Shown piece by piece: positions 18,299 to 34,050 of a stretch of DNA of 64,000 nucleotides. Numbering within the stretch: position 1 is the stretch's first letter; the number at the start of each line of letters is the position of its first letter. Both the position numbers and the translations under genes were made by a program. The stretch is from Saccharothrix sp. S26 (GTDB taxonomy: Bacteria; Actinomycetota; Actinomycetes; Mycobacteriales; Pseudonocardiaceae): positions 186,001 to 250,000 of the forward strand of contig NZ_JAJUWT010000004.1 of assembly GCF_021390395.1 (NCBI RefSeq). Direction: 5' to 3'. The notes beneath the pieces were generated by a model. That model ran no database searches and was not told the DNA's origin. It was given only the letters and a program-made list of their open reading frames with translations.

Positions 18299-21200
18299 TC
18301 ATAGGTTTTGGGCATAGGCGCCGTCGATGTCCCACCGATCGGCGTCGGCCATCAGGCCGATCATGCCCGAGACCAGGCGGAGCTGGTCGACGCCGCGGAT
18401 GTCGGCCTCCACCAGCCTCGGCGAGCACACCACGACCGCCACGGCCTGCGCCCGCGACAGCGCGACGTTCAACCGGTTGCGCGACAACAGGAAGTCCAGG
18501 CCGCGCGGCAGGTCCACCGCGGCCGACGACGTCATCGTGGTGATCACCACCGGTGCCTCCTGGCCCTGGAACCGGTCCACGGTGCCGACGCGCACGTGCT
18601 CGTAGCCGTGCTTCTCCAGCTCGCGCCGCACCAGGCGCACCTGGAGGTTGTACGGCGCCACCACGAGGATGTCCGAGTCGTCCAACGCGCGCGCGTCCGG
18701 CCCGTCCGTCCACATGCGACCCATGAGCGACCGCACCACGCCCACGACCGCCGTCGCCTCCTCGATGGACGACGTGGTGTTGTGCGCGTGGGGCACCGAG
18801 TGCACGTACACGCCCGACGGCACGCCGTCGATCCCGCGCGCGGCGGCGCTGGGGTGCGCGTGCAGGAGCCCGGCGTAGGACAGGTTGGACACCGGCGCGC
18901 ACACCGCCGGGTGCATCCGGCGCGTCTGGTCCAGGAAGTAGCCCAGCTCCGGGGGGATCACGTCGGCGTCGCCGATCAGGTGCCCCAACGCCGACGCCTC
19001 CGCGCCCGCCGGGTGCGTGCCCTGCACGACCTGCGGCAACTGCTGCGGGTCGCCCAGCAGCACGAGGTTGCGCGCGCACGTCGACACGGCCAGCGCGTCG
19101 GCCAGCGCGAACTGCCCGGCCTCGTCCACGATCAGCACGTCGAACGGCTGCTCGCGCAGCGCCGCGTTGGCGAACGTCCACGCCGTGCCGCCGACCAGGT
19201 GCCCGCCGCCCTGGTCGGCGCGCCACCGCACCAGCGCCGGGTTGTCGCGCGGCTGCTCCCACGCGCAGTCCTTCGCGGGCGTGCCCTTCGCCCGCTTCGC
19301 GGTCGGGATCGGCACCCCCAGCTCACGGCCCGCCGCCAGGGCCGCGCTCAGCACGTTCTCCACCGCCTTGTGGCTGGTGGACGTCACGCCGACGCTGCGG
19401 CCGCCGCGGATCAGGTGCGCGATCAGCCGCCCGGCCAGGTAGGTCTTGCCCGCGCCGGGCGGGCCCTGCACGGCCAGCGTGGAGCCGTCCAGCGCGTCCA
19501 CGGCCGCGATCACGTCGGCGATCAGGTCGTCACCGCGCGGCAGGGCGCCGGTCTTCAGTCGCGGCGGCGTGCGGCGGATCAGGTCGATGCCGGGGTGCGG
19601 CGGCAGCGCGGGCAACCCGTCCACGACCGACCGCGCCAGCTCGTAGACCGCCTCGTCCTTCGGCTTGGGCTGGACCGGGCTGCCCGGCAGGACCGCGACG
19701 GGCTGCTCGCCGTGCACGTCGTCGGGCGACACGCTCTCCTGCACCACCAGGTCCTCGGCCGACTCGGCGAGCACCACCGCGTCCCGGGTCACGTTCGGCG
19801 TGCCCGGGTAGAGCAGCCGCACCTGGTCGCCCTTCGCGAACGGGTGCGGCCGGTCCGGGTCGCACCACACCCGCAGCTCGCGCTTGGCCTTGCGGACCCG
19901 GCCGGACGGCATCTCCCAGTCCTGCGCCCGCACCGACACCGGCACCGCGCACGCGCTGTCGGATTCCAGCTCGCTCAGCGGCGCGGCCACCTGCCGGAAG
20001 AAGTCCCACCACGCCGGGTTGGTCTCCCGCCGGTGGTAGCCGACGGCGGCGGCCAGCAACGCCCGCGCCCGCTCGTCGTCGGTGGCCTCCGCCGGGTTGT
20101 CCGGCAGGCCCTCCAGCAGCGGGTCGACCACGGCGGCGAGGCGTTCGGCGCGCTCGGCCCGCCGCTGGGCGGCGATCTCGTCCTCGATCTCCTCGCCGAA
20201 CGACGGCTCGGGCACGTGCGGCTCGATGCCCGCCTCCGCGCGCACCTCCAGCAGGAACCGGTAGAGCCGCAGCGTGGAGACGCAGTCGTAGGTGTTGTAG
20301 TCGGCGATGCCGGTGAGCACGTCCTCGGCTCGGGCCGGGTCGACCTCGCGCAGGGACAGGAACTCCTCGTAGGCCTCGATGCTGGACACGGCCGTGGTGA
20401 CCTCGCCGCCGCGTGCCTCGGGCATGTAGAGCGGCTCGAGGTACTTGATCGAGTACGACCGCTGGGACACGCGCAGGGCCTTGCGGACCACGGCGTAGAG
20501 GTCGACCAGCGCGCCGGAGCGCAGCAGGTGGTCGACGGCGTCCTCACGGGTGCCGTGCAGGGCGGCGAGCTTCTTGAGCGCGTTCACCTCGTACGGCGCG
20601 TAGTGGTAGACGTGCGCGTCCGGGTGTTGTTCCAGCGTCCGGGTGGCGTGGTCGACGAACCGCTCGAACGCGACCTTCTCCTGCGGCCGGGTGTGCGCCC
20701 AGAACGGTGTGAACCGCTCGTCCGCGTCGACCACCCCGAACAGGTACTCCAGGCCCTGGCCGTCGAGGGCGAACGGGTCGCCCTCCATGTCGAAGAACAG
20801 GTCGCCGGGGCTGGGCCGGGGCAGCGTGGCCAGGGCTTCGGGCGCGACGACCTCGTAGGCCACCTTGCCGATCGGGTCGTCCTGGGTGCGCGAGTCGTCC
20901 TGGATGACCTGGAGCGCGGCCTGGGCGCGCAGGCCGGTGAACGTGGCCGCGGACATCGTGGCGGGCCGGTCGGCGCGGGTGGCGTTGGCCAGCGCGTCGA
21001 TCGTGCGCAGGCCCGCGGCGGCGAGCTTGCGGCGCTGGTCGGCGCGGATGCCGGCGACCAGGGACAGGTCGCGGTCGGCTTCCCGGCCGGTGGCGCAGTG
21101 CCGGCCGAACCGGCAGGTGGCGCAGGCGGGGCGTTCGTCGTCCCAGAGGCGTTCGGGCAGGGCGGCGGGTGCGGCGAGGCGGGCGGTCAGCCGGGTCCGC

Positions 21201-21748
21201 AGGTCGCGGACGAGCGGGAGGAAGTCGGCGACCTGGAACGTCTTGGTGGTGCCGTCGCCGAGCAGGAGGTGCATGGCGGGGCCGGCGTGGTGGGCCAGCG
21301 CGTCGGCGTAGGCGGTGAGCTGCACGACGGCGGCCGGGGTGGCGTGCCGGGCGAGCTTGGCGTCGTGCGGCTCGTAGCCGCGGTCGGTGGCGACGAGGAA
21401 GTCGGCGCGTCCGTGGAAGCCGTCGGCGTAGAAGACGGCCTGGTAGATCACCGGCGCGCGGTCCGCGATCGCCCGTGCCGTCTGCGCGGCGGCCAGGGTG
21501 AGGGCGTCGTGCGTCGGGGCGGGCTGCGGGATCTCGACCACGTCGTGCTCGGCGCGGAACCTCGCCAGGACGGCCTGCTCGTGGGCGTGGCCGTGCCGGG
21601 TGGCGAGGGTGTTCGGCTGCGGGTCGGGCACGGGCGCGCCGGGCAGGCCGACGGCCAGCGCCAGCGACAGCCGGCTGCGGTGGTCGCACTCCAACAGGTC
21701 CACCAGGTCCGCGGGGGAGTGCACCAGGTGGCCGTCGGCGGTGAGCAT
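18299..21748 (-). CDS. RecB-like nuclease (TM0106 type) fused to superfamily I helicase
   Basis: The 1149-residue protein starts at the ATG at 21748 (MLTADGHLVHSPADLVDLLE). The N-terminal half is a TM0106-type RecB-like nuclease: LECDHRSRLSLALAVGLP, HGRADFLVATDRG, and a cysteine cluster ACATCRFGRHC that may bind an Fe-S cluster with an earlier cysteine. The middle contains DEDDh-like exonuclease elements (DLFFDMEGDPFALDGQG). The C-terminal half is a DNA2/UPF1-like helicase: VQGPPGAGKTYLAG (Walker A, near residue 760), LIVDEAGQFALAD, LLGDPQQLPQVVQG, VDRFQGQEAPVVI and RLNVALSRAQ. It acts on DNA or RNA ends; its biological role is not established. Its upstream DNA is palindromic repeat B. Confidence 0.88.
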   Translation of the reverse strand: MLTADGHLVHSPADLVDLLECDHRSRLSLALAVGLPGAPVPDPQPNTLATRHGHAHEQAVLARFRAEHDVVEIPQPAPTHDALTLAAAQTARAIADRAPVIYQAVFYADGFHGRADFLVATDRGYEPHDAKLARHATPAAVVQLTAYADALAHHAGPAMHLLLGDGTTKTFQVADFLPLVRDLRTRLTARLAAPAALPERLWDDERPACATCRFGRHCATGREADRDLSLVAGIRADQRRKLAAAGLRTIDALANATRADRPATMSAATFTGLRAQAALQVIQDDSRTQDDPIGKVAYEVVAPEALATLPRPSPGDLFFDMEGDPFALDGQGLEYLFGVVDADERFTPFWAHTRPQEKVAFERFVDHATRTLEQHPDAHVYHYAPYEVNALKKLAALHGTREDAVDHLLRSGALVDLYAVVRKALRVSQRSYSIKYLEPLYMPEARGGEVTTAVSSIEAYEEFLSLREVDPARAEDVLTGIADYNTYDCVSTLRLYRFLLEVRAEAGIEPHVPEPSFGEEIEDEIAAQRRAERAERLAAVVDPLLEGLPDNPAEATDDERARALLAAAVGYHRRETNPAWWDFFRQVAAPLSELESDSACAVPVSVRAQDWEMPSGRVRKAKRELRVWCDPDRPHPFAKGDQVRLLYPGTPNVTRDAVVLAESAEDLVVQESVSPDDVHGEQPVAVLPGSPVQPKPKDEAVYELARSVVDGLPALPPHPGIDLIRRTPPRLKTGALPRGDDLIADVIAAVDALDGSTLAVQGPPGAGKTYLAGRLIAHLIRGGRSVGVTSTSHKAVENVLSAALAAGRELGVPIPTAKRAKGTPAKDCAWEQPRDNPALVRWRADQGGGHLVGGTAWTFANAALREQPFDVLIVDEAGQFALADALAVSTCARNLVLLGDPQQLPQVVQGTHPAGAEASALGHLIGDADVIPPELGYFLDQTRRMHPAVCAPVSNLSYAGLLHAHPSAAARGIDGVPSGVYVHSVPHAHNTTSSIEEATAVVGVVRSLMGRMWTDGPDARALDDSDILVVAPYNLQVRLVRRELEKHGYEHVRVGTVDRFQGQEAPVVITTMTSSAAVDLPRGLDFLLSRNRLNVALSRAQAVAVVVCSPRLVEADIRGVDQLRLVSGMIGLMADADRWDIDGAYAQNL

Positions 21749-21831
21749 GGCGGGCAGTATCGCGGCCGACCCGGCCAACCCCTTGGACCGCGCACGGCGA
21801 GTCGCCGGACTGCGGCCCGCACCACTGTCCT

Positions 21832-21951
21832 GAACGTTCAACTCGGGTGTCGTGAACGTAGGACACACGCGACCTGAACGTAGGACTCTCGCGCGAGTCC
21901 TACGTTCGGAACGCGAGAGTCCTACGTTCAGGACACCCGGGATGAACGTTC
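21832..21951. repeat. Palindromic intergenic repeat, copy B (most complete)
   Basis: The left arm GAACGTTCAACTCGGGTGT, then GAACGTAGGACACACGCG, then GAACGTAGGACTCTCGCG mirrors CGAGTCCTACGTTC, CGCGAGAGTCCTACGTTC and ACACCCGGGATGAACGTTC. The 3' end of the HEXXH gene runs into the element, and its stop codon (21928-21930) lies inside it. It therefore spans the junction between the HEXXH gene and the helicase gene. Confidence 0.92.
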
Positions 21952-23088
21952 GGGGAGCGGGCCGTGGGCGGCCTGCCAGCGGGCGCGGTGGGCGGCGGCC
22001 TCGGCGGCGGCGACGGCCTCGGCGGACGGTGGCAGGGGCTCGGCGCACCAGGCGCGCAGCACGGTGGCCATCTCCGCGACGAAGCGGACGCCGGTCGGGG
22101 TCAGCGCGTCGCCGGCCAGCAGGGTCTCGGCGGCGGTCAGCGCGGCCGAGCGCCAGCGCGCGTACTCCGCCTGCGCGGCCGGACCCGGCCGGGCACGCCA
22201 GAAGCCCGCCACGCCCAGGTGCGCGTACGTGCCGTGCAGCAGGCCGGCCGCCGGTCGCGGGTCTTCCCGCCACGGCGCGTAGAACAACGCCTCACCGCCC
22301 GGCTCGACCAGCGCGAACAGGTCCATCAACGCGACCAGCTTGCTGTGCTGCGCCTCGTGCGCCAGCGTCACGGCCACCGTCTCGGCGTCCGGCATCGGTG
22401 ACAGGAACACGCACCCGAACGCGTCGGCCAACGTCGCGCTGCTCGTCCCCGAACGCGACGACGGCATCGGCGTCACGACCGACACGACCTCGGCGCACTC
22501 CGCGGCCAGGTCCGGGTGGTCGCGGGTCAGCAGCTCCCACGCCGCGCCGAGCGCGTCACGCCACCGCGGCACGTCGACCGACGCGGCCACCGGCAGCCCG
22601 TCCGGCACACCGCCACCGGCCCACAGGTCCACCTGCACCGACCACCCACCCAGGTCGATCTCCGGCAGCGGCTCGTACGCCAACCCGGGCCCCACGACCA
22701 CACCCAACGACGGCAGCGAGAACACCTCCACCGGCGGGAACTCCAGCTCCACCGGCAGCCCCGCCCGCACCGCCGCCGCGGCCGCCGTGAACGCCAGTTC
22801 CGCCGGACGCGCCGCCGCACCCCGGCGCATCGCCACCGCCGTCCGCGTCGCCCAGGCGCCGACCGACGGGTGGTCCAGCACCCGGTCCACCTCACCCGGC
22901 GCGACCCGCGCCACCTCGCACAGCAGCCCGAACGCCGCCCGCGCCGCCGGGTCCGCCGCGATCGACCGGATCAGCAGCAACGTCCGGCTGCGCCGCGCCA
23001 GCCGCAACGTCCGCACCGCGGGCCCGCCACCGCCCCGCGCGAGCGCGGTGAAGTCCGAGGCCGACACCCGGAACGGCCCGACCGTCAC
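21928..23088 (-). CDS. HEXXH-motif peptide-modification protein of the FxSxx-COOH system
   Basis: The 386-residue protein begins at a GTG (23088) overlapping the radical-SAM stop by 4 bp. It carries a zinc-protease-like signature TLAHEAQHSKL near residue 243 and a following HGTYAHLGVAGFW segment, the pattern of the HEXXH domain found with RiPP radical-SAM enzymes. In FxsB proteins this region is usually fused behind the radical-SAM domain and its motif is described as inactivated. Here it is a separate gene with the motif intact, so it could be a working protease or hydrolase that trims the modified peptide (inference). Its last codons (ERSSRVS) come from palindromic repeat B. Confidence 0.8.
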   Translation of the reverse strand: MTVGPFRVSASDFTALARGGGGPAVRTLRLARRSRTLLLIRSIAADPAARAAFGLLCEVARVAPGEVDRVLDHPSVGAWATRTAVAMRRGAAARPAELAFTAAAAAVRAGLPVELEFPPVEVFSLPSLGVVVGPGLAYEPLPEIDLGGWSVQVDLWAGGGVPDGLPVAASVDVPRWRDALGAAWELLTRDHPDLAAECAEVVSVVTPMPSSRSGTSSATLADAFGCVFLSPMPDAETVAVTLAHEAQHSKLVALMDLFALVEPGGEALFYAPWREDPRPAAGLLHGTYAHLGVAGFWRARPGPAAQAEYARWRSAALTAAETLLAGDALTPTGVRFVAEMATVLRAWCAEPLPPSAEAVAAAEAAAHRARWQAAHGPLPERSSRVS

Positions 23089-24209
23089 GCCAGCGCCGCC
23101 AGGTCCGACGACACCCGCGACCGCACGTGCCCGATCAGCCGCGCCAGGTCCGGGCAGTACACCGACGGCCGGTCGAACCCGGCACCCTCCAGGAACCGGT
23201 GCGCCCGCAGCCCTCCGCCGCACGCCGACACCACGGGGCACCGGCGGCACCGCGCGGCCAACCCCGCCAACCCGGCTCGACCGGCGCGCACCTGCGGCAG
23301 CTCCCACGCCGCGTCGAACGCGTCACGCGCCACGTGCAGCCCCGTGGCCGAAGCCTCCGGCGAGGACGACGCCAGGATGTCCGACACCTCGATCGCGCCG
23401 TCGGTCTCCACCACCACCTGAGCCGACGGGCTCAACCCGATGCCCTCCACCCCGGAACGCCCGCCCAGCACCACCGACAGCAGCTCCTCGAACAGCCGCA
23501 CGCGCGTCACCGGCCGGTCGTACCAGACGTCGAACACCGCGATCAGCCAGTCGGCGTACGGCGTCGAGGCCGGGTCCGCGACCCGTCGGGGCGGCGGCGA
23601 CGACCAGTTGCCGTGCGGCAGCAGGAAATCCACCGCGGGCGGCGCGAACCCCAGCAACGACTCGTAGACGCGCAGCGGGTCTTCGCGCACGTCCACCACG
23701 CACAGCAGGCCGCCGTACACCTCGGGGAAGGAGCGCAACGACGTCAACGCCGCGCGCACCGCCGCCCAACTGCCGCCGCCGTCGGGCCGCACGCGGTGCC
23801 GGTCGTGCGCCCGCGGCGTGCCGTCCACGCTCACCCCGACCCGCACACCGAGCGCGGAGAACAGTTCGAGGAATTCGCGGTCCAGCAATGTCGCGTTCGT
23901 CTGCACGGTGAACCGCACGGTCGCGGGCACGACCGAGCGGAACCGCTCCACCAGCGACCCGATCGCGGCCCGTCCCGCCAACAGCGGCTCGCCGCCGTGC
24001 AGCACCACTTCCACGTCGGACAACCCGTGCCGCCGCACGTGCTCGGCCACCCGTGCGGCGGTGTGCGCGACGATCTCCGGCGACATCGCCCGAGGCCGGG
24101 AACGCCACCGCTGGTCGGCCAGTTCGTAGACGTAGCAGTAGTCGCACGCCAGGTTGCACCTGCTGTGCACCTTGAGCACGAACTGGCGGAACGCCAAGGC
24201 TTTTCCCAC
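23085..24209 (-). CDS. fxsB: Radical SAM/SPASM enzyme FxsB-like
   Basis: The 374-residue enzyme starts at GTG 24209 (VGKALAFRQFVLKVHSRC). The radical-SAM cluster motif is CNLACDYC (Cys18, Cys22, Cys25), with the glycine-rich VVLHGGEPLLAG near 80. A C-terminal SPASM-type cysteine set CRRCPVVSACGGG and a later YC would hold auxiliary Fe-S clusters. The FRQFVLKVHSRC opening is characteristic of FxsB proteins. It should install a radical-based crosslink or other modification near the C-terminal FESSL of the divergently encoded precursor; the product chemistry is not known to me. A longer start at 24263 is possible. It is coupled to the HEXXH gene. Confidence 0.88.
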   Translation of the reverse strand: MGKALAFRQFVLKVHSRCNLACDYCYVYELADQRWRSRPRAMSPEIVAHTAARVAEHVRRHGLSDVEVVLHGGEPLLAGRAAIGSLVERFRSVVPATVRFTVQTNATLLDREFLELFSALGVRVGVSVDGTPRAHDRHRVRPDGGGSWAAVRAALTSLRSFPEVYGGLLCVVDVREDPLRVYESLLGFAPPAVDFLLPHGNWSSPPPRRVADPASTPYADWLIAVFDVWYDRPVTRVRLFEELLSVVLGGRSGVEGIGLSPSAQVVVETDGAIEVSDILASSSPEASATGLHVARDAFDAAWELPQVRAGRAGLAGLAARCRRCPVVSACGGGLRAHRFLEGAGFDRPSVYCPDLARLIGHVRSRVSSDLAALA

Positions 24210-24279
24210 CCCCGATATTCCCGACGCGCCAAGCAATCTGCGACCCCACCTGCAATCAAACACAGCGCGCCGCCCGCTG

Positions 24280-24330
24280 CCTCCGCCAATCGGAGGATTC
24301 CCGACGGTGACCGTTGTCGTTCACTACGAT
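24280..24330. promoter_or_regulatory. Divergent control region between fxsB and fxsA
   Basis: CCTCCG-CCAAT-CGGAGG (24280-24296) is a perfect inverted repeat, followed by ACGGT-G-ACCGT near 24303-24313. A TACGAT near 24326 could be a -10 element for fxsA. These lie between the divergent starts and are candidate operator sites; no regulator gene is adjacent. Confidence 0.35.
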
Positions 24331-24411
24331 GGGAAGCGCGCCGCCGGCGTTGCCGGCAATCGGGGCGAGGAGCGAGAAATCCGCAGCACTGCGGTGAGGG
24401 GTAGGTCGGAC

Positions 24412-24579
24412 ATGGCTGCCGAACCCGTCCTGGAGTCGGAACTCCTGGACGTCACGGGCGTGGACCTGGCCCGGTTGGCCGAACTGCCGGACACCGCGCT
24501 GCGCGCCGCGCTGCACCGGATCCTCGCGGACAACGCCGAGCTGCCCAACCGGTTCGCGGCCTTCGAGAGCTCCTTGTGA
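24412..24579 (+). CDS. fxsA: FxSxx-COOH precursor peptide FxsA
   Basis: The 55-residue peptide ends RFAAFESSL-stop, exactly the F-x-S-x-x-COOH signature. The leader contains LLDVTGVDLARLAELPDTAL, which matches the usual FxsA leader, with an acidic stretch before it. As a ribosomally made substrate it would be recognised through the leader and modified at Phe/Ser near its C-terminus by the divergent radical-SAM enzyme. ATG at 24412 is preceded only by a weak GGTAGG-like site. The HEXXH and TPR genes on either side complete the known gene set. Confidence 0.9.
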   Translation: MAAEPVLESELLDVTGVDLARLAELPDTALRAALHRILADNAELPNRFAAFESSL

Positions 24580-24702
24580 CGGCTGCCGCGGCGACCGGTG
24601 GCGCGGAGGCTGCTGCCGTTCGGGTGAAACGCGGCTGAGTCGCGGGCGCGCGGCCCGCGTTCCCGGTATTCCCAAGTCCCCTCCGCCGCTCTGGAGCAGC
24701 AG

Positions 24703-27700
24703 ATGACCACGCCGCGCACCGCCCCGGGACACACCGGGGTCACCGCCTTCCTGTCGGCGACCGGGGGGACCGGCCGCACCAGCGCGGTGGCGAACCTGGC
24801 GTGGGTGTTGGCCGCGGCCGGGCAGCGGGTCCTGGTGGTGGACTGGGGTTCGGAGGTGCCGCGGGTGCGCGAGTACCTGGAGCCGTTCCTGGTGGCACGC
24901 CTGGGCTTGCCGGACGCGTTGGGCCGCGGGCTGATCGAGGCGTACCGGGCGGACGAGGCGCGCGACGACGACCCGCCGCCGGTCGTGGAGCGGTTCGCGC
25001 CGCCCGCGGGTGACGTCACCGCGCCGGGCCACGTGGACGTGGTGTCGGCGACGCCGGCCGACGCGGCGGGCCGGCCGCGGCACGGTGACGCGGGCGCGGT
25101 GGCCGAGCTGCGCGCGCGGCTGGCCGAGTCCGACTACGACCAGGTGCTGATCGACGCGCCGACGGGCGCGGGCGACGAGTCGTTGACGGTGATCGCGACC
25201 CTGTGCGAGCTGGCCGTGGTGTGCTTCCGCCCGCGTCCCCGGGCCATCGCGGACGCGGCGGACCTGGCGGCACGGCTGCGCAAGCGCGCGCCGATCCGGA
25301 TCGACGTCGTGCCGGTGGCGACGTTGTTCGACGACGCCGACGAGCAGTCGCGGGCGCAGCGCATCCGGTCGGCGATCCACGCCGCGTTCGCCGAGCTGCT
25401 GGCGGGCCAGGCGAAACGGGTGCCCCACGGCGGCGCGATCGAGATCCCCTACCGCCCGTACGACGCGTTCGACCCGCTGCTGGCGATCCTGGTGGAGGAG
25501 CCGTCCGGCGGCGGCGCGATGGAGGTCCAGTACGGCAGGCTCGCCGCGGCGGTGACCGGCGGCGCGGTCACCGAGGTGGCCCCGGTGTCACCGGTGCTGC
25601 GCGCCCGCTACCGGCGCGTGTTCGGGCTGACGTCGACCGTCGAGCCGGACCGCGTGGTCGTCGTGCACGCGCCGCGTGACCGGCCTTGGGCGGACTGGGT
25701 GCGCGGCCAGTTGGAGCGGGCGGGCGCGCGGGTGCGCCGCCTGGCGCAGGCGCGGGAGTGGTTCGAGGCCGACGTGCCGCCGGGCGTGGTGATCCTCTGG
25801 TCGCCGCACCTGGGCCCGGTGGAGCTGCCGGCCGTGCCGCTGACCGTGCTGCGGCTGCGGCTGGCCGAGGACGGCCCGTCGGACGGCGGGCTGTCGGTGC
25901 ACGAGCACTCGCCGGAGGCCTTGAGCGCCCGGCTGCTGAGCCACTTCGGCCTGATCGACCGGCCGGGCACGGTGCACGAGCCGGTGGTGCGGGTGCCCGG
26001 CAGCGAACCGGCGGTGTTCGGGCTGCCGCCGCGCCACCGCGGTTTCGTCGGCCGCGACGAGGACTTGGAGGCGTTGCGGGACCGGTTCGCGGCGGCGGGT
26101 GACGGGCACGTGGTGGTGACCGTCAGCGGCGTGCCCGGCGTGGGCAAGAGCGAGCTGGCGCTGGAGTACGCCTACCGCTTCTCGGCGGACTACGCGGCGG
26201 TGTGGTGGTTGTCCGCGCACGACCGGCAGTCGGTGCTGACCGGCCTGGCGGAGCTGGCGTCACGGCTGCGGCAGCCCGGCTCGACCGACTACGGCACGCT
26301 GTCCGCGCTGGAACGGCTGTCGAACGACCCGGCGTACGCCCGGTTCCTGCTGGTCTACGACAACGCCGACGACCCGGACGCGATCGCCGACCTGCTGCCG
26401 ACCGGCGCCACCGGCCACGTGCTGATCACCTCCGCGCCGGCGGGCGGGCCGGCGGTGGAGCTGGTGCCGATGAGCGCCGAGGACGGCGCGGGTCTGCTGC
26501 TGGACCGCGTGCCGGGGTTGACCGCGGACGACGCGCGGCGCGTCGCGGACGCCGTCGGGCACCTGCCGTTGGCGCTGGACCTGGTGTCGTGCTGGCTCGG
26601 CGAGACGGCGCGGACGGAGGTGGGCGCGGGCTCGCGGGACGCCGACGCGGCCACCTGGGCCACCCGCACCCTGTTCGAACGCCTCGACCGGTCCGACGCC
26701 GACGGGGTGGCGCGGGTCGTCGACGTCGCGGTGGAGGCGTTGCGGGTCAGCGCCACGGGCCGGTTGGCGGTGCTGGTGGCCGAGCTGTGCGCGTTCCTGT
26801 CGCCGGAGGGCGCGGACCTGGGGCTGGTGCGCTCGCCCGCGTTCCTCGGCCGGGTCGTCGTGGCGGGCGGCGTGGACGCGGAGCCGCTGGAGCTCGACGC
26901 CGCCGAGATCGACCGGGTGCTGTGGTACGGCGCGCGGCACGGGCTGTTCCGCGTCGACTGGGGCGACCAGTACTCCCTGCGGCTGCACCGCGTGGTGCAG
27001 CGCGCGCTGCGCGACCGGATGAGCCCGGAGACGCGGGAGGAGCGGCAGTCCGCCGTGCTCGCCGCGCTGGCCGCGGTGGCGCCGACGGAGGTGGAGGACA
27101 ACTCGCCGACCCGGCACGCCCGGTTCGCCGAGCTGCAGAAGCACGTCCTCCCGTCCGGCGCGCTGGGCAGCGACGACCCGAAGGTGCGCCGCTGGCTGGT
27201 CAACCAGGTGCGGTTCCTGTTCACCGACGGCGGCGCGGGCGTGCGGCGGGCCGCGCTGGGGCCGGGGCGCGCCCTGCTGGACGCGTGGACCCGGCGGTTC
27301 GGCCCGGCCGACCCGCTGCGCAACCGGCTGGCCACCGAGCTGGCCAACGTGCACCGCGTGCTCGGCGAGCCGACCGAGGCGTTGCGGCTGGACGACCTCG
27401 CGCTGGCCCAGCAGCGGCGGGCCCTGGACCTCACCCACCCGCGCCCGCTGATCACCGCCCGGGGCCGCGGCGGCGACCTGCGCGGCCTCGGCCTGTTCGC
27501 CGAGGCGCTGGCCGAGGACCAGGCCACCTGGGAGGGCCTGCGCTCGGTGCTCGGCGAGGACCACCCCGACACCCGCCGCGCCGCGAACAACCTGGCGTCC
27601 TCGATGTTCCTGTCCGGTGACGCGGCGGGCGCGCTCGCGCTGGAGGAGGACAACTACCGCAGGCGCCGGCGGCTGTTCGGCACGGGCGACGTGCGCACCT

Positions 27701-28425
27701 GGGCCACGCTCGCCCAGATCGGGCTGTACCAGCGGGAACTGGGCCGTTACCCGGAGGCGTTGGACTCGCTGCTGCACGCGTCGCAGCAGTTGCAGGCGCT
27801 GCGGCCCGGGCTCAACCAGCTCCAGGTCGGCGTGCAGTGGCACCGGGCCATCGCGTTGCGCCTGGTGGGCCGGGTCAAGGAGGCCAAGGAGCGCACCGGC
27901 AAGGCGTTGCGGGACTACCGCGAGCTCCTCGGCCCGCACCACCCGTACACGCTGGGCTGCGCGCTGGGCTTCGCCGCCGACCACCGCCGGGTCGGCGTCG
28001 ACCCCGAGCTGGCCGTGGAGCTCGCGCGGACCGCGTCGACCGGCTTCCAGCAGCACGTCGGACTCCGCGACGATCACCCGTTCGTGGCGTTGTGCAGGCT
28101 GGGCCTCGGCTTGGCGCTGCGCGCGGCGGGGGACCACGCGGGCGCGGTGAGCCACGTGGAGGCGGCGACGGCGGCGTTGCGCGCCCGGCTGGGCGACACG
28201 CACCCGTGGACGCTGGCGTCGGCCGTCGACGAGGCACGGGTGCTCGCCGCGGCGGGCGAGCCGGACCGGGCCGCCGAGCTGATCGCCGACACCCACACCG
28301 ACTGCCTGGAGTTCCTGGGGCACGATCACCCGCACACCGCCGCGGCGGCGCACAACCTGCGGCTCGCGGCGCACCCGACCGACCAGGACTGGCGGGAGTG
28401 CGATGTCGACATCCCGCACACCTGA
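24703..28425 (+). CDS. fxsT: FxSxx-COOH system tetratricopeptide protein FxsT (ATPase/TIR-like/NB-ARC/TPR)
   Basis: This 1240-residue multidomain protein begins with a ParA/MinD-like ATPase (FLSATGGTGRTSAVANLAWV near residue 15; VLVVDWGSEVPRVREY; later VLIDAPTGAGDESLTVIA). Residues about 315-405 look like a TIR domain (VVVVHAPRDRPWADWVRGQL, GVVILWSPHLGPVELP). An NB-ARC domain follows (VSGVPGVGKSELALEYAY near 475; FLLVYDNADDPDAIADLLP near 547). From about 860 to the end are TPRs of the long CHAT/kinesin-light-chain kind (LGEDHPDTRRAANNLASSM). Such architectures sense and assemble, as in STAND conflict proteins. Its exact role with FxsA/FxsB is unknown. It lies 123 bp after fxsA. Confidence 0.88.
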   Translation: MTTPRTAPGHTGVTAFLSATGGTGRTSAVANLAWVLAAAGQRVLVVDWGSEVPRVREYLEPFLVARLGLPDALGRGLIEAYRADEARDDDPPPVVERFAPPAGDVTAPGHVDVVSATPADAAGRPRHGDAGAVAELRARLAESDYDQVLIDAPTGAGDESLTVIATLCELAVVCFRPRPRAIADAADLAARLRKRAPIRIDVVPVATLFDDADEQSRAQRIRSAIHAAFAELLAGQAKRVPHGGAIEIPYRPYDAFDPLLAILVEEPSGGGAMEVQYGRLAAAVTGGAVTEVAPVSPVLRARYRRVFGLTSTVEPDRVVVVHAPRDRPWADWVRGQLERAGARVRRLAQAREWFEADVPPGVVILWSPHLGPVELPAVPLTVLRLRLAEDGPSDGGLSVHEHSPEALSARLLSHFGLIDRPGTVHEPVVRVPGSEPAVFGLPPRHRGFVGRDEDLEALRDRFAAAGDGHVVVTVSGVPGVGKSELALEYAYRFSADYAAVWWLSAHDRQSVLTGLAELASRLRQPGSTDYGTLSALERLSNDPAYARFLLVYDNADDPDAIADLLPTGATGHVLITSAPAGGPAVELVPMSAEDGAGLLLDRVPGLTADDARRVADAVGHLPLALDLVSCWLGETARTEVGAGSRDADAATWATRTLFERLDRSDADGVARVVDVAVEALRVSATGRLAVLVAELCAFLSPEGADLGLVRSPAFLGRVVVAGGVDAEPLELDAAEIDRVLWYGARHGLFRVDWGDQYSLRLHRVVQRALRDRMSPETREERQSAVLAALAAVAPTEVEDNSPTRHARFAELQKHVLPSGALGSDDPKVRRWLVNQVRFLFTDGGAGVRRAALGPGRALLDAWTRRFGPADPLRNRLATELANVHRVLGEPTEALRLDDLALAQQRRALDLTHPRPLITARGRGGDLRGLGLFAEALAEDQATWEGLRSVLGEDHPDTRRAANNLASSMFLSGDAAGALALEEDNYRRRRRLFGTGDVRTWATLAQIGLYQRELGRYPEALDSLLHASQQLQALRPGLNQLQVGVQWHRAIALRLVGRVKEAKERTGKALRDYRELLGPHHPYTLGCALGFAADHRRVGVDPELAVELARTASTGFQQHVGLRDDHPFVALCRLGLGLALRAAGDHAGAVSHVEAATAALRARLGDTHPWTLASAVDEARVLAAAGEPDRAAELIADTHTDCLEFLGHDHPHTAAAAHNLRLAAHPTDQDWRECDVDIPHT

Positions 28426-28444: not shown

Positions 28445-29407
28445 GTGGAGCTGCACGAGGAGCAGGCCGAGCACGTCGGCCCCGAGTTCGAGCCGGCCAG
28501 GCAGGCGTGCCGCGAGGCGGTCGTGGACAGCCCGGCCCTGCACTACCTCGCGCACTACAGCAGCGGCGTGTTCGACTTCGGCGTGGACGTCCTCGGCGAC
28601 CCCGGACCCGCGCCCGACGCGCTGCCCGGCGGCACCCGCCGCGAGGAGCTCAAGCGGCTGGGCAGGCACCTGACGTTCCAGGTCGCCTCGCTGGACCGGG
28701 CCTTGCAGGAGGTGCGCACGGGCCGGCTGATCCGCACCGTGCTGCACACCGAGGAGGGCGCGTTGTTCTGCGACTCCGTCGTGCCGACCGAGCACGTCGT
28801 CGGCCTGGTGCTCGACCACGCGGGCGCGGGGCCGCTGTTCGGCCACCCCGCCGTGGAGGAGGCGGACCGCGCGGTGGCCGGGCTCGCCACCCGGCTGCGC
28901 GCCCAGCTCAGCCTCGGCTCGCTCAACCCCGGCGGGTGGCAGAGCGCGGCGGGCGTCGAGCCGCTGCCGGTGGAGCGGGACGTGGCGGCGCACGTGACGG
29001 TGGGGGAGGGCCCGCTGACCGCGTGCCTGGCGGCGGTGCGCGCGCAGGACCTGCACCTGGTGGCGCACGTCGTCGGCGGCGAGGTGCGGGCCATGGTCGA
29101 CTGCCTGGGCGACCCGTCGCTGGCGCCGTTCTTCCGGCAGGTCGCGGTGGACGCGCGCCGCCGGTTCTACCACGGGTTCGTGCAGGAGCTCGGCGCGGTG
29201 GCGACCAGGCTGAACCGGGCGGTGAACCCCGTCGTGGGCGGGCTGATGGCCCGGCTCGTGCTGGACGTCGAGATGGGCGCGATCTACTACTACCGGTTGC
29301 GCGCGGGGGAGTACCTCGCCGGCGTGACGCTCGACCAGTCGCGGGTCCGCGCGGCGGACGACCGGATGTCCGCGCTGGTCGACGAACTCACTCCGATCGG
29401 TCCTTGA
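28445..29407 (+). CDS. Unrecognised protein encoded behind fxsT
   Basis: The 320-residue protein is read from GTG 28445, which has AGGAAGG 7 nt upstream; the in-frame ATG at 28403 inside fxsT is less likely. I recognise no family. The sequence is soluble and mixed, with segments [60 protein letters not shown] and a helical C-terminus with [18 protein letters not shown]. The 20-bp gap suggests cotranscription with fxsT, so it may be an accessory gene of the FxSxx-COOH system. No signal peptide or membrane segment is seen. Confidence 0.75.
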
Positions 29408-29438: not shown

Positions 29439-30635
29439 GTGACGCCCGTGATCCGCTCGGCCGCCCTCCTGTCGGCCCTCGGCGCGGGGTGGCTCGCGGC
29501 GTGGTGGTCCGGCTGGCACGACGTCGACCGGTCGCCGGCCTACGGGTTCTTCATCACCGCCCTGCTCGGGTTCGGGCTGTACGCGAGCACGAGCGGGATC
29601 GTGATCGCGGAGTTCCGCCGGCAGCTGGGCACGGTGCTGCTCGCGGTCACGCTCGGGGTGCTGGCGAAGGTCGCGCTGATCTTCGGCGTGATGCTCCTGG
29701 CGTTCGGCGAACCGGGCCACTTGGTGCTCGCGGTGGCGGTCGCGCAGATCGACCCGCTGTCGGTGGCCGCGATGCGGGCCAAGTCGCGGATGTCGGACTC
29801 GGCGAAGGCGCTGCTGGCGGCGTGGGCGTCGTTCGACGACCCGATCACCGTGCTGCTGACCGTGTACATCACGGCGTTCGCGGTGCGGGGCGGCGCGGCC
29901 GGCGGTGTGGGGTCGTTCGCGGTGAACCTGGTGCTCAACCTGGCGTTGGCCGGGGTGGCGTTCCTGCTGTGGGCGCTGGTGCGCGGGCGGGTGCGGCGGG
30001 CCGAGGCCGGTGGCCGCGCGGTCCGGTACGCGGTGCGCGCGGTGATGGTGGTGGCCGTGCTCGCCCTCGGGTTCGTCGCGGTGCAGCAGTCGTTGTTGCT
30101 GGCCTTGGCGTTGCTGGGGTTGTTCTTCCGGCCGAACCTGGGTCGGTGGGTCGACGGGTTGGCGCAGGCGGGCATGGCGTTGGCGCTCGTCGCGGTCGGG
30201 CTGGTGCTGGCGGCGGAGTTCAGCTGGGCGCTGGCCGGGGTCGGCGCGGTGCTCGGGGTGGCGGCGTTCGGCGCGCAGGCGGTGGTGGCGTTCGCGCTGA
30301 CCGCGCCGAAGCGGTGGCGCGGCGACCGGGTGCGGCTGGCGCTGGGGCAGCAGAACGGGCTGACCGCGATCATCCTGGCGTTGCTGCTGGAGCCGGCGTT
30401 CCCGGGGGCCATCGCGGTGGTCGCGCCCGCCGTCGTCGTGGTGAACCTGCTGCACGCGCTCGCCAACGGCGGCTACGACCGCCTGTCGCGGGTGATCCCG
30501 CCACCGGTGCCGGGCAGCGATTTCGGTCTGTCGGCCATCCCCGCGCCGGGGCCGGAACCGAAGCACGTGCCGCGGGTGCCGCTCCAGCCGGTGCCGCGGG
30601 TGGCGTCGACCTACCGGTCCAAGCCCACGCCCTGA
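29439..30635 (+). CDS. CPA-type sodium/proton antiporter
   Basis: The 398-residue protein has about 11-12 membrane segments across its length and a Pro-rich cytoplasmic tail. [16 protein letters not shown] near residue 130 carries the paired Asp typical of ion-translocating sites in CPA antiporters, preceded by [17 protein letters not shown] and followed late by [18 protein letters not shown]. It probably exchanges Na+ or K+ for protons at the plasma membrane. The GTG at 29439 has a GTGGAG ribosome site. It follows the unrecognised gene by 31 bp and could belong to the same operon. It is convergent with the AAA ATPase pair, 10 bp away. Confidence 0.75.
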
Positions 30636-30645
30636 CCGCCCGCGC

Positions 30646-32928
30646 TCACGCGGGGGACGACCGGAACACGGCACGGCGCACGCGCGGGCTCAGGTTGCGC
30701 AACGCCTCGTGCACGCGGGTGCGGCGCGAGCCCTGGCCCACCTCGGCCACCAGGCCGCCCGACCGCGCCGACCACGGCGGCATCTGCACCAGCGGGTCCA
30801 GCAGGAACAGCGGCAGGAACTCCACGATCCCGTCGTAGATGCCGCACAGCTCCTCCAGCCGCTCCTCCGCGTCGGCCTCGCCCGCCGTGGCGTACCACTG
30901 CGCCACCGCGGCCCGGAAGGCCCGCACGGCCTTCTGCATGATCACCGCCTGCGACGCGGCCCGGGTGAACTCCGGCGTCCGCAGCCGCCGGTGCACCGCC
31001 TCCTGCGTGGCGGTCGGCGCGTGGTCGAACGCCTCCTCGAACATCACGTCGACCTGCGTCAGGTCCTCCAACACGTCCACCGCGTCCCGGAACAGCCGCT
31101 CCACCTCGCCGGGCAGCCTGCCCGGCGTCGCCTCCGCCACCCGGCCGGGCGTGCCGGCCAACGCCCCGAGCTGCCGCTGGATCGCGCCGAGCTGCCGGTC
31201 CGCCGACGCCCGCACGCCGTCCATGTGCTCGGCCAGGTGCTCGATGAACCCGTAGATGCTCGACTGCTGCTTGGCCAGCTGGTCCATCCGCCACCGCAGC
31301 GCCGACAACGGGTCGGTGTCCTGGCCCGGCCGCCGGCCCGTGGCGCTGATCAGCGCCTTGAAGTCCTCGGCGAACGTCCGGTCGACGTACACCAGCGGCT
31401 CGCGGCCCAGCAGCTCGCGCAACTGGATCGCCACGCCGTCCGTCACCACGCCGTTGACCAGCAGGACCAGCTCGGCGTCCGGCTCGGCCTCGCGCACCGC
31501 CGAGATCCGCCGCACCACCGCGCCCACGTCGGCGTTGTCCAGCAGCGACCCGGTGATCAGCACGGCGCAGCCGCCCGCCTGCTCCGGGAACGTGACCCAG
31601 AAGTCCACCAACGACTCCTCGGCCACGCCGAGCAGGTGCCGGTGCAGGTAGTCCTGGCCGCCCGCGTCGAGCACCCGGCGCACTACGCCGTCGATGTCGT
31701 CCGAGCTCAACGACCCGAACAGGTCGCGCGCCGCCTGCCGCACCATGTCCTCGGTGACGACGAACTCGTGGCCGGGCGCGCGGGACAGGTCGTCGGCCAT
31801 CCGGAACACCCGGTGGCACAGCCGGATCACGTTGCGCGCGTTGCCCCGGGCGAGGTCGCGCAGGTACCGGGTGGTGTCGACGGTGAACGGCGCGAGCTGC
31901 CGCTCGCCGAACACCTGCTCCTGCGCCAGCTCGACGAACTCGCGCACCTCGCCCTGGCTGAGCCCGGACATCACCACCGTGTACGGGATGCGCTGCCGCA
32001 CCGCGGGCGGCAGCACGGCCTTGAAGTCGGGCAGCCCGCACAGCACCAGGCACGCCCCGGCCTTGGCGAACACCTGCAACAACGTCTGGAACGCGGCCAT
32101 CGTGCGGGCCTGCGGCCTCGAGTCGGCGGAGAAGATCTTGTCGAGCTCGTCGATCGCCAGCACGAACCGCCGCTGCCTGCCGCCGAACAGCAGGGCGAAC
32201 ACGCCCATCGCCTCCAGCGCGGCCACCTCGGTGTCGATGGGCGTGGCGATGCCGCGTTCGACCAGCACCTGGTCGGGTGTGCCGCCGAGCAGCCACGACC
32301 ACACCGCGTGCTCGAACCCGGGCCGCAGCAGCAGCGTGAGCGCGGTGCCGAAGTCCTTGTTGTTGGTCACCTCGCGCAGCGTGTCCTGGACCTTGCGCAG
32401 CAACGCGCTCTCCATCAGGCCCAGCCGTTCCACGACCTCCTGCGGCTCCAGCTGCCTGCTGCCGAGCCACTCCAGCATGTCGCTGGTCAGGCCGCTGCTC
32501 TGCAACGAGTCCGCGACGATGTCCGCGTAGTACTCGCTGACCTGCGCCCGCACGCCCTCGCGACCGAGCTTCTGCATGAACCGCCGGTACAGCTCGATGA
32601 AGCTCTCGGCGGTAGCGTCGAGGTACAGCGCATGCGTCGGGTCGGCCAGCGCCTGCCGGGCGTGCCGGACCAGCCGCACGGCCAGGTGCGTCTTGCCCGT
32701 GCCGTAGTCGCCGAGCACGGCCACCACGGTGCCGGTGCGGTCGCGGCCGCCGCGCGCGGGCGGCGCGTCGAGGTAGGACGTGAGGTGCGCGAGCGCCTGC
32801 CGCGCCGCGTCGGTGGTGATCGCCACGTCGACCGCGTCGGGATCGGCGTCGAAGTCCGTGATCCGGGCGACCGCCATCGGCGAGAAGGGGTTCTTCCGCG
32901 TGGGCGGGAGGTCGCTGCTACCGCTCAT
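30646..32928 (-). CDS. Large AAA+ ATPase of a two-ATPase pair
   Basis: The 760-residue protein opens with KNPFSPMAVARITDFDADPD. Its ATPase module has VVAVLGDYGTGKTHLAVRLV (Walker A, near residue 70), FVLAIDELDKIFSADSR (Walker B, near 260) and LARGNARNVIRLCHRVFRM (sensor/arginine region, near 380). The C-terminal half (about 400-760) contains an RMDQLAKQQSSIYGFIEHLA coiled region and no recognised catalytic domain. It overlaps the smaller ATPase by ATGA and is translated with it. The family resembles ORC/KAP-like P-loop proteins, but I cannot name it. It is likely cytoplasmic and may be a regulator or a conflict-system motor (inference). Confidence 0.75.
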   Translation of the reverse strand: MSGSSDLPPTRKNPFSPMAVARITDFDADPDAVDVAITTDAARQALAHLTSYLDAPPARGGRDRTGTVVAVLGDYGTGKTHLAVRLVRHARQALADPTHALYLDATAESFIELYRRFMQKLGREGVRAQVSEYYADIVADSLQSSGLTSDMLEWLGSRQLEPQEVVERLGLMESALLRKVQDTLREVTNNKDFGTALTLLLRPGFEHAVWSWLLGGTPDQVLVERGIATPIDTEVAALEAMGVFALLFGGRQRRFVLAIDELDKIFSADSRPQARTMAAFQTLLQVFAKAGACLVLCGLPDFKAVLPPAVRQRIPYTVVMSGLSQGEVREFVELAQEQVFGERQLAPFTVDTTRYLRDLARGNARNVIRLCHRVFRMADDLSRAPGHEFVVTEDMVRQAARDLFGSLSSDDIDGVVRRVLDAGGQDYLHRHLLGVAEESLVDFWVTFPEQAGGCAVLITGSLLDNADVGAVVRRISAVREAEPDAELVLLVNGVVTDGVAIQLRELLGREPLVYVDRTFAEDFKALISATGRRPGQDTDPLSALRWRMDQLAKQQSSIYGFIEHLAEHMDGVRASADRQLGAIQRQLGALAGTPGRVAEATPGRLPGEVERLFRDAVDVLEDLTQVDVMFEEAFDHAPTATQEAVHRRLRTPEFTRAASQAVIMQKAVRAFRAAVAQWYATAGEADAEERLEELCGIYDGIVEFLPLFLLDPLVQMPPWSARSGGLVAEVGQGSRRTRVHEALRNLSPRVRRAVFRSSPA

Positions 32929-33899
32929 GGCGCATTCACCGGTCCATTCCGGGACTTGGTGTTCAAGAACGCCCTGATGTCCTCGACGGTCACCAGATCG
33001 GCCTCGGAGTAGCCTAGTCCCGTTACCCGTTTGTGCTCGTAAGTGCCGTGCAGGAACCGCTGCAACATCGCGACCGACTGGCAGTGCTTGGCCACCAGTT
33101 CGATCGCGTCGTCACTCAGCCGCGGATAGGTCCCGGCGGCCGCGTGCCGAGCCAGCCGGTCCTCGGCGAACCGCTGCGCGTCACCGGGGTCGAGCGGGCC
33201 GACGTGCAGGGTGATCGGCGGTACCCACGTTTCCAGTTGGCGCACGACGTCGGCCACCTCGTCCGTGCCCAGGTAGGCGGACTCGGTCAGGAACAGCACC
33301 TTGGCGCTGTTGAGCGTGCGCGCGTAGCGGATCACCTCGTCGACCAGCTCGTTCGGGCTGGGCAGCAGCACGATCAGCGCGACCTCCTCGCGCAGCGCCC
33401 GGCCCAGGCGCGGGAACACGCGGCGCGGCACGTCCCGCACGGCGTCCAGCCGCTCCTCGCTCTCCGGGCGCAGCGCCCCCGCGTCCACGAGCAGGTCGAA
33501 CATGCGGTCGCACACCTCGGCGGTGCGCTGGTCGATGGACAGCTCCTGGTCGGTCGGCAGGCAGCCGGTCAGGTCGAGCACGACCCCGCGCAGGTCGCGC
33601 CGCCGCAGCTCGCCGACGACCCAGTCGGCGCACCGGTTGACCAGCGCGGTCTTGCCGCAGCCGGACTCGCCGGTGACCAGCGCGAGCCGGCCGTACTCCA
33701 GCATCACGGCCAGGTCGCCCATGGACTGCCGGAAGTGCTCGAACGCGGCCTCGGCGCCGTCCACGGGCACGTAGTAGTCGCGGTGCGCCGGCCGGTGCCA
33801 GGGGCGCAACGGCCGCATCGGCGTGCTTTCCCAGCCCGGCAGCGGGAACGGGTTGACGCGCGGCCGCGCGGCGGCTCGACCGGCCCGCCCGCCGTCCAT
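32925..33899 (-). CDS. Small AAA/ORC-like ATPase of a two-ATPase pair
   Basis: From ATG 33899 the protein has 324 residues. After an N-terminus with RVNPFPLPGWESTPMRPLRP, it shows RLALVTGESGCGKTALVNR (Walker A, near residue 90), EVALIVLLPSPNELVDE (Walker B region) and a C-terminal helical lid with DDAIELVAKHCQSVAMLQRF. The NPF-x-P motif near the N-terminus is shared with its partner, which may mark a common docking element. The upstream frame is open to 33962, but the ATG with a GGGG site upstream is preferred. Its stop overlaps the large ATPase start. Function unknown. Confidence 0.72.
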   Translation of the reverse strand: MDGGRAGRAAARPRVNPFPLPGWESTPMRPLRPWHRPAHRDYYVPVDGAEAAFEHFRQSMGDLAVMLEYGRLALVTGESGCGKTALVNRCADWVVGELRRRDLRGVVLDLTGCLPTDQELSIDQRTAEVCDRMFDLLVDAGALRPESEERLDAVRDVPRRVFPRLGRALREEVALIVLLPSPNELVDEVIRYARTLNSAKVLFLTESAYLGTDEVADVVRQLETWVPPITLHVGPLDPGDAQRFAEDRLARHAAAGTYPRLSDDAIELVAKHCQSVAMLQRFLHGTYEHKRVTGLGYSEADLVTVEDIRAFLNTKSRNGPVNAP

Positions 33900-34050
33900 G
33901 CCCACCCCCGTCGCCTCGCGGCGGCCTCGCGAAAGCTTCAGCCTACCGACGGAGAGTCGCACGCGGGCACCGTCGCGTTAACCGGTGCACCCCGATCGGC
34001 GCACCGGCGTTACTGCGGTCGGGAAAGGGTGGAACAGGCGCGTGACCTGC

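What the first reader, a model, noticed from the sequence alone, without database searches (positions are those of the whole stretch)
21928..28425. FxSxx-COOH peptide system with the HEXXH domain as a separate, motif-intact gene
A 55-residue precursor ends FESSL-COOH and is divergent from an FxsB-like radical-SAM/SPASM enzyme (CNLACDYC; CRRCPVVSACGGG). The HEXXH part usually fused to FxsB as an inactivated extension is here a free gene with HEAQH intact, coupled by a 4-bp overlap. This suggests either the ancestral split form or an active protease/hydrolase step acting on the modified peptide. The mature product of this system class is not known to me.
Basis: partly seen in the sequence, partly recalled or inferred. 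Interest (0 to 1): 0.78.

Follow-up and report, generated by a model that had tools for sequence, protein, structure and literature searches.

The report
Split cyclophane peptide system with hydroxylase
Saccharothrix bacteria carry a small peptide that two enzymes probably ring-close and hydroxylate beside an immune-receptor-like protein; the two-gene enzyme arrangement is common, but further genes of unknown purpose are inherited together with it.

Summary
At 21928-24579 lie a 55-aa FxSxx-COOH precursor (FxsA), an FxsB radical-SAM/SPASM maturase and, joined to it by a 4-bp GTGA overlap, a free HExxH gene with an intact motif; all pass their NCBIfam cut-offs. The interpretation needs correcting. 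The HExxH protein belongs to the alpha-ketoglutarate/iron peptide beta-hydroxylase family (ChlH, SjiH), not to a known protease family. The split form is not unusual: of 129 distinct FxsB loci, 89 are split, 14 fused, 22 have no HExxH gene in the stretch held, 4 have one elsewhere; only 4, all fused, have lost the motif. Fusion looks derived on a quick tree. The unexpected result is a larger cassette. Of 25 genus genomes, the same 19 hold FxsB, a Pfam-less protein predicted to contain Roadblock/LC7-like folds ('FxsX', my name), a polytopic membrane protein and an AAA ATPase; the same 6 lack all four. In the family draw 34 of 249 genomes have FxsX, and all 34 have FxsB. Three genomes hold a second cassette without FxsB. 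I read it as a two-step modified peptide serving an NB-ARC/TPR signalling module; the chemistry is supported by homology, the role is inference.

The parts
21928..23088 (-). fxsH: free alpha-KG-HExxH-type peptide beta-hydroxylase, 386 aa, GTG start
   Evidence: TIGR04267 167 bits over cut-off 40; predicted fold pLDDT 94.8 matches SjiH 22ob E 1.8e-18 and ChlH 8s5f E 4e-11
22345..22359 (-). HEAQH codons (residues 244-248)
   Evidence: sequence; motif kept in 103 of 107 HExxH proteins aligned
23085..23088 (-). GTGA 4-bp stop/start overlap fxsB-fxsH (likely translational coupling)
   Evidence: sequence; start codon at the same overlap in 76 of 89 split loci, at most 11 at any other offset tested
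23085..24209 (-). fxsB: cyclophane-forming radical SAM/SPASM maturase; start uncertain (GTG 24209 or TTG 24236)
   Evidence: TIGR04269 447.9 bits over cut-off 370; ChlB 9gm3 E 1.7e-76; possible starts
24412..24579 (+). fxsA: 55-aa precursor; predicted cyclophane F51-E52-S53, C terminus S54-L55
   Evidence: TIGR04268 52.2 bits over cut-off 28; tail FAAFESSL in all 19 loci of the genus
24703..28425 (+). fxsT: ParA/MinD-like domain with variant P-loop (GGTGRTS), weak TIR-like segment (below Pfam cut-off), NB-ARC/STAND-type NTPase (GVPGVGKS, LLVYDNADD), TPRs
   Evidence: NF040586 742.8 bits; Pfam (the NB-ARC model itself only 11.9 bits, AAA_16 39.2); motif positions
28445..29407 (+). 'fxsX' (name given here): predicted tandem Roadblock/LC7-like protein, 320 aa; an ATG at 28403 is a possible earlier start
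   Evidence: no Pfam, NCBIfam or PADLOC match; model pLDDT 89.7 matches MglB/Roadblock at E 9e-6 over about half its length; co-occurs with FxsB
29439..30635 (+). polytopic membrane protein, 398 aa
   Evidence: 13 overlapping hydrophobic stretches; no Pfam match; same 19 of 25 genus genomes as FxsB, in one of them (G012) only at the second cassette; in the same stretch as fxsX in 38 of 48 loci
30646..32928 (-). AAA ATPase, 760 aa
   Evidence: Pfam AAA_22; same 19 of 25 genus genomes; also in the three FxsB-less cassettes
32925..33962 (-). second P-loop ATPase, 345 aa, 4-bp overlap with the AAA gene; weakest claim to membership
   Evidence: homologues in L230-L232 and in L108, L129, L131, L132; Pfam AAA_22 and AAA_16 below cut-off

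Best explanation
A maturation-plus-signalling cassette. FxsB, a radical-SAM/SPASM maturase, joins the ring of Phe51 to the beta-carbon of Ser53 in the C-terminal F-E-S of FxsA. FxsH, translated in step with FxsB through the GTGA overlap, then uses Fe(II), alpha-ketoglutarate and O2 to hydroxylate a beta-carbon of the cyclophane-bearing tail; it is a free, motif-intact version of the domain fused to the rSAM in ChlBH. No leader peptidase or ABC exporter was recognised among the window's cassette genes, so the modified peptide probably acts inside the cell with FxsT, an NB-ARC/TPR protein of the kind built to sense a ligand and assemble, together with FxsX (Roadblock/LC7-like), a polytopic membrane protein and AAA ATPase(s) as likely output or control parts. 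Shown here: gene identities, motif intactness, fold matches, conserved overlap and co-inheritance. Inferred from characterised relatives: cyclophane, hydroxylation, order of steps. Inference only: intracellular ligand role, Roadblock and membrane outputs, conflict/defence purpose.
For: NCBIfam assignments over cut-off. FxsH fold matches the alpha-KG HExxH proteins SjiH and ChlH, the only matches with E up to 0.001. The motif is kept in 103 of 107 HExxH proteins aligned; outside the motif G225, W273, R278, P279 and G333 are identical in all 102 sequences that the script counted as motif-intact, and the 3 motif-lost forms that align at R278 have V there. FxsB to ChlB, E 1.7e-76. MscB of IPR026335 makes Phe C4 to Ser C-beta (PMC11002830, passages); ChlBH's HExxH domain needs a preformed cyclophane (PMC12636437, passages). 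76 of 89 split loci have the 4-bp overlap. The NB-ARC and TPR parts of FxsT each match in 86 of the 88 split loci other than the window. FxsX, membrane protein and AAA are in the same 19 of 25 genus genomes as FxsB, and absent from the same 6. FxsX: in 34 of 44 FxsB-bearing and 0 of 205 FxsB-lacking family genomes (Fisher p 2.6e-33, not corrected for kinship).
Against: No biochemistry. The hydroxylated residue is not identified: Q, E, N or D at the middle ring position is as common with HExxH (72 of 86) as without (8 of 10), p 0.67, and some intact systems have Gly there. The third iron ligand was not resolved. W273 and R274 persist in the motif-lost forms that align there, so their conservation is no proof of catalysis. 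PflC can act as a peptidase on leaderless substrate (PMC12636437), so hydrolysis is not excluded. FxsX is missing from 10 of 44 FxsB-bearing family genomes and matched in only 7 of 77 loci outside the family, and in 0 of 14 fused loci, so it is not core to all Fxs systems. FxsT parts match in fewer of the loci without HExxH (NB-ARC part 14 of 22). In some searches at most 7 and 9 candidates a genome were scored, so an absence is not proof. Peptidases and exporters were judged only from the window's own genes, not in all loci; the membrane protein might be an exporter.
Confidence: 0.62

Rival explanations
1. FxsH is a zincin-like metallopeptidase that cuts FxsA and releases a C-terminal peptide toxin or signal, as proposed in 2020 for FxSxx-type systems.
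For: eLife 2020 (PMC7159879, section 24 read) calls it a zincin-like metallopeptidase; PflC of the same family hydrolyses a leaderless substrate (PMC12636437, passages); a clostridial collagenase appears far down the fold list (4are, E 3.7).
Against: TIGR04267 and the significant fold matches are to alpha-KG HExxH proteins; no Pfam peptidase match; R278, conserved outside the motif, is V in the 3 motif-lost forms that align there, which fits a co-substrate role better than a peptidase, though W273 and R274 stay.
Confidence: 0.1
2. Classical secreted RiPP: FxsA is cyclised, hydroxylated, trimmed by an unlinked protease and exported as an antibiotic or signal; FxsT and its neighbours are regulators or immunity.
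For: FxsA is a TIGR04268 precursor; MscB and ChlBH chemistry is RiPP chemistry; a polytopic membrane protein is in the cassette and could export.
Against: No exporter or leader peptidase recognised among the window's cassette genes; an NB-ARC/TPR protein goes with FxsB in 86 of 88 split loci; the FxsA tail is the same in all 19 loci of the genus, unlike a diversifying antibiotic.
Confidence: 0.25
3. FxsH keeps its motif but acts mainly as a structural partner of FxsB (substrate binding), as the inactivated fused form may do.
For: Four fused forms lost the motif yet keep the domain; the two genes overlap by 4 bp in most split loci.
Against: 89 of 89 split copies retain HExxH (88 by script; the 89th, L105, by its printed sequence); the three FxsB-less cassettes keep it too (HELQH).
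Confidence: 0.08

Closest known systems
[quoted passage not shown] 2024 (known to me only as cited in PMC12636437 and PMC13060819; not held)
   Same: Both halves are homologous: FxsB to ChlB 9gm3 E 1.7e-76; FxsH to ChlH 8s5f by sequence E 3e-6 and fold E 4e-11.
   Different: Two genes here; different precursor; accompanied by FxsT, FxsX and the others.
SjiH (PDB 22ob, 22nu; 22ob released 2026)
   Same: Closest solved relative of FxsH: phmmer E 1.2e-31, fold TM 0.79 of query.
   Different: Depositors call the molecule a radical SAM core domain-containing protein, so it may come from a fused protein; 4 held papers contain the word SjiH, none on this subject by title.
MscB/MscA, FxsB-family triceptide maturase (IPR026335)
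   Same: Same InterPro family (that IPR026335 corresponds to TIGR04269 is recalled); Phe-x-Ser cyclophane (PMC11002830, section 16 passages).
   Different: The role of an HExxH partner is not described in the passages read.
Standalone FxSxx peptide-processing systems with AP-ATPase and MinD/ParA-like domain (PMC7159879, section 24)
   Same: Small peptide, HExxH protein, rSAM, NB-ARC/TPR protein with ParA-like domain.
   Different: That text calls the HExxH protein a peptidase; its main text has 0 occurrences of 'roadblock' and of 'antiporter' (figures and supplements not seen); FxsX, the membrane and AAA genes and the FxsB-less copies are not in the passages read.

Membership tests
FxSxx-COOH cyclophane-containing RiPP precursor (TIGR04268) | profile score over cut-off and C-terminal FxSxx | tested here: met
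   52.2 bits, cut-off 28; ends FESSL
FxsB cyclophane-forming maturase (TIGR04269) | profile score over cut-off, CxxxCxxC and SPASM cysteines | tested here: met
   447.9 bits, cut-off 370; motifs
FxsB cyclophane-forming maturase (TIGR04269) | makes the Phe to Ser cyclophane | not testable with these tools
   needs expression and mass spectrometry
alpha-KG-HExxH peptide beta-hydroxylase (TIGR04267) | profile score over cut-off, intact HExxH | tested here: met
   167 bits, cut-off 40; HEAQH
alpha-KG-HExxH peptide beta-hydroxylase (TIGR04267) | ChlH fold | tested here: met
   AlphaFold2 model, pLDDT 94.8, to 22ob and four 8s5f chains with E below 1e-9
alpha-KG-HExxH peptide beta-hydroxylase (TIGR04267) | Fe/alpha-KG-dependent hydroxylation | not testable with these tools
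   needs an in vitro assay
FxsBH inactivated-extension form (NF040587) | score over cut-off, fused, motif lost | tested here: not met
   76.7 bits against cut-off 225; separate gene; motif intact
zincin-like metallopeptidase | match to a peptidase family or fold | tested here: not met
   no Pfam peptidase match; no protease among fold matches with E up to 0.001, a collagenase only at E 3.7
FxSxx-system TPR protein (NF040586) | profile score over cut-off | tested here: met
   742.8 bits, cut-off 300
Roadblock/LC7 (FxsX) | sequence profile match | tested here: not met
   no Pfam match for the window protein; none to Roadblock in any of 33 members
Roadblock/LC7 (FxsX) | Roadblock fold (element order recalled) | tested here: met
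   model pLDDT 89.7; MglB E 9.2e-6, probability 1.00, TM of target 0.71 over about half the protein; fold resemblance, not family membership

The most novel reading that the evidence does not exclude
FxsA is not a secreted natural product but an internal, cyclophane-capped and hydroxylated 'password' peptide for an NLR-like guard. FxsT reads the state of the peptide's C terminus, which depends on SAM, Fe-S clusters, iron, O2 and alpha-ketoglutarate, and passes it to a Roadblock/membrane/AAA output; interference with the host's metabolism would change the modification and trip the guard. Second cassettes that lack FxsB borrow it in trans.
Probability: 0.15. Interest if true: 0.85.

Novelty: new variant of a known kind. 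Interest (0 to 1): 0.52.

Why it matters
It corrects the protease reading of a widespread actinobacterial gene, shows that the split overlapping FxsB-FxsH pair is common rather than odd, and gives a defined co-inherited gene set around an NB-ARC/TPR protein. FxsX, the membrane protein and the AAA gene are concrete handles for asking what FxSxx systems do; of the 3 held papers that contain 'FxSxx' only the 2020 one is on this subject by title, and it offers a hypothesis. The FxsB-less second cassettes offer a natural test of whether FxsH needs a preformed cyclophane made in cis.

Tried and rejected
Substrate residue by covariation: middle ring residue against HExxH presence gave nothing (p 0.67). 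Ser rather than Asn at the third ring position (61 of 86 with HExxH, 2 of 10 without, p 0.003) and exactly two residues after the ring (62 of 86 against 2 of 10, p 0.002) look associated, but the kinship-corrected test had only 3 independent pairs on well-supported branches (8 on all) and cannot reach significance; I treat them as leads only. These counts leave out loci with no FxsA hit at E 1e-4 or no [FWYH]-x-[SN] in the last 40 residues, and the OTHER class; they use one best FxsA per locus.

Rejected: FxsB as a viperin (PADLOC pVip, 41 bits; the TIGR04269 score is far higher). EspG5 as a relative of FxsX (E 0.62). AimP label on the membrane protein (18.5 bits, cut-off 35).

Sampling limits: 141 loci became 129 after removing identical FxsB sequences. 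Two of the 12 phylum-draw FxsB matches (G206, G047) were not fetched with flanks; their open frames (441 and 490 aa) are too short for a fusion. Some of the 22 NONE loci are cut by contig ends. L105 has an intact motif, but its HExxH frame opens well downstream of fxsB; one search counted it as motif-lost because the script took a weaker neighbouring hit. L124 was left out of the FxsX alignment because my extended frame held a stop. The 'invariant' motif residues are so by the way the set was chosen, so I count 103 of 107 instead. The FxsA model was built iteratively from my own hits. In the tree without outgroup the motif-lost group has 96% SH-aLRT, with ChlB 94%.

Papers: PMC7159879, section 24 and passages; PMC12636437, abstract and passages; PMC13060819, PMC11002830, PMC12257519, PMC10885120, PMC12026744, passages only; other papers only as search listings; Morishita 2024 and Phan and Morinaka 2022 seen only as citations (the first is not held; the second was not looked up by id).
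Full report
What is there. Reading leftwards from about 24209 are fxsB and fxsH on the minus strand; reading rightwards are fxsA, fxsT, a gene I call fxsX, a membrane-protein gene and, converging on it, two ATPase genes. NCBIfam assigns FxsA, FxsB, the HExxH protein and FxsT over their cut-offs. The stop of fxsB and the start of fxsH share GTGA at 23085-23088. The start of fxsB is uncertain (GTG 24209 or TTG 24236). The window's genome, 9.1 Mb, has one TIGR04267 match and one FxsB over the cut-off. The genus contains Saccharothrix: a contig of a genus genome (G017) has the length and match place of a record titled Saccharothrix sp. ALI-22-I.

What FxsH is. Its only solved relatives by sequence at E up to 1 are 22nu/22ob (SjiH) and 8s5f (ChlH), and the same proteins are the only fold matches of a confident model (pLDDT 94.8) at E up to 0.001 (1.8e-18 and 4e-11); 8s5f is titled a novel alpha-ketoglutarate dependent oxygenase. 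Of 107 HExxH proteins aligned, 103 keep the motif (102 by script and L105 by its printed sequence). Outside the motif G225, W273, R278, P279 and G333 are identical in all 102, and R274 (101) and D276 (99) nearly so; of the four motif-lost fused forms, the three that align there have V at R278 but keep W273 and R274. Related proteins beta-hydroxylate Asp and His on a preformed cyclophane (ChlBH, as told in PMC12636437), Gln (PflC, PosC) and Pro (PesO, PMC13060819); PflC can also hydrolyse a leaderless peptide. So hydroxylase first, protease second.

Split against fused. I gathered 141 FxsB loci (and the window), 129 after removing identical FxsB sequences. Split with a neighbouring HExxH gene: 89; fused: 14; no HExxH gene within the stretch held: 22; HExxH elsewhere in the stretch: 4. 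The motif is intact in 89 of 89 split copies (88 by script, L105 by its printed sequence) and in 10 of 14 fused. In the family draw of 249 genomes the 45 matches have frames of 361 to 631 aa, none of fusion length. A quick maximum-likelihood tree puts 13 of 14 fused rows on one side of a 99% SH-aLRT branch, the fourteenth (L179) elsewhere, and the four motif-lost rows together inside the fused group (96%). With ChlB as outgroup split rows branch first (deep branches 90-94%) and the fused group is nested; that outgroup has a very long branch and ChlBH is itself fused, so I call split-first likely, not shown. In 76 of 89 split loci a start codon stands at the exact 4-bp overlap; the next most frequent offset has 11 and the mean of the others is 1.9.

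The peptide. The tail FAAFESSL is the same in the window and all 18 other genus loci. Across loci with an FxsA hit the ring motif is mostly F-x-S or F-x-N, with some H, W or Y in first place. MscB, of InterPro family IPR026335, joins Phe C4 to Ser C-beta (PMC11002830, passages), so F51-E52-S53 is the expected ring. I could not find the hydroxylated residue.

The cassette. The NB-ARC and TPR parts of FxsT each match in 86 of 88 split loci other than the window; the NB-ARC part matches in 13 of 14 fused and 14 of 22 HExxH-less loci. FxsX matches in 18 of 18 other genus loci, 23 of 33 other family loci and 7 of 77 others; in 46 of 88 split, 0 of 14 fused and 2 of 22 HExxH-less loci. FxsB, FxsX, the membrane protein and the 760-aa AAA protein occur in the same 19 of 25 genus genomes and are missing from the same 6: G002, G008, G009, G011, G013, G024; in G012 the membrane protein is at the second cassette only. 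In the family draw 34 of 249 genomes have FxsX; all 34 are among the 44 with FxsB, and none of the 205 without a listed FxsB has it (at most 7 and 9 candidates a genome were scored). The membrane protein matches in the same stretch as FxsX in 38 of 48 loci (many stretches end within it). FxsX has no Pfam, NCBIfam or PADLOC match, and none of 33 relatives matches a Roadblock family. Its model (pLDDT 89.7) has two similar halves of helices and strands, and about half of it matches MglB and Roadblock domains (E 9e-6, TM of target 0.71). The membrane protein has many hydrophobic stretches and no database match; a likeness to cation/proton antiporters is my reading, not a test.

FxsB-less second cassettes. 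G023, G012 and G007 hold a second set: HExxH protein, FxsA-like peptide ending QYAAFQSSL, FxsT, FxsX and both ATPases, with the membrane protein in two of three, and no FxsB match in the 18-19 kb held. Each of these genomes has one FxsB at the main locus. Either FxsB serves both peptides, or FxsH acts on an uncyclised tail there.

Mechanism and role. Cyclisation by FxsB then hydroxylation by FxsH rests on characterised relatives. That the product acts inside the cell with FxsT rests on the frequent NB-ARC/TPR partner, the constant tail within the genus and the lack of a recognised peptidase or exporter among the window's cassette genes; a 2020 study already proposed a signal or toxin role for such peptides (PMC7159879, section 24). 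The NB-ARC P-loop and Walker B look intact by eye; the ParA-like P-loop is a variant (GGTGRTS) and the TIR-like segment is below the Pfam cut-off.

Novelty. FxsA, FxsB, FxsH and FxsT are members of named families, and separate peptidase-like and rSAM genes were described in 2020. New here, as far as the searches go, are the counts of split, fused and lost forms, the conserved overlap, the co-inherited FxsX/membrane/AAA genes and the FxsB-less copies. Supplements and most subscription papers, among them the two key Morinaka papers, were not read.

Noticed in passing
L230, L231, L232 (genomes G023, G012, G007): Second Fxs-type cassettes with FxsH, FxsA-like peptide (QYAAFQSSL), FxsT, FxsX and ATPases but no FxsB match.
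   Followed up: partly
18299-21877 (-): Large TM0106-type RecB-like nuclease fused to a helicase (TIGR03491 206 bits; PADLOC MkoA 137 bits), matched in the fxs stretch of all 18 other genus loci but in only 1 of 33 other family loci.
   Followed up: partly
21855-21945: Repeated and palindromic ACGTAGGACTCTCGCG-type sequence between the nuclease gene and fxsH (read by eye); possibly a terminator or a regulatory site.
   Followed up: no
genus genomes: All 25 genus genomes, also the 6 without FxsB, have at least one TIGR04267 match, so other HExxH peptide systems are common here.
   Followed up: no
L135, L136, L137, L222: Fused forms that lost HExxH have also lost the conserved Arg278 in the three that align there; one clade on the FxsB tree.
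   Followed up: yes
L139, L169, L177, L217: Some FxsB loci carry two FxsA-like peptides, or in L139 a repeated GNFNSFI tail.
   Followed up: no
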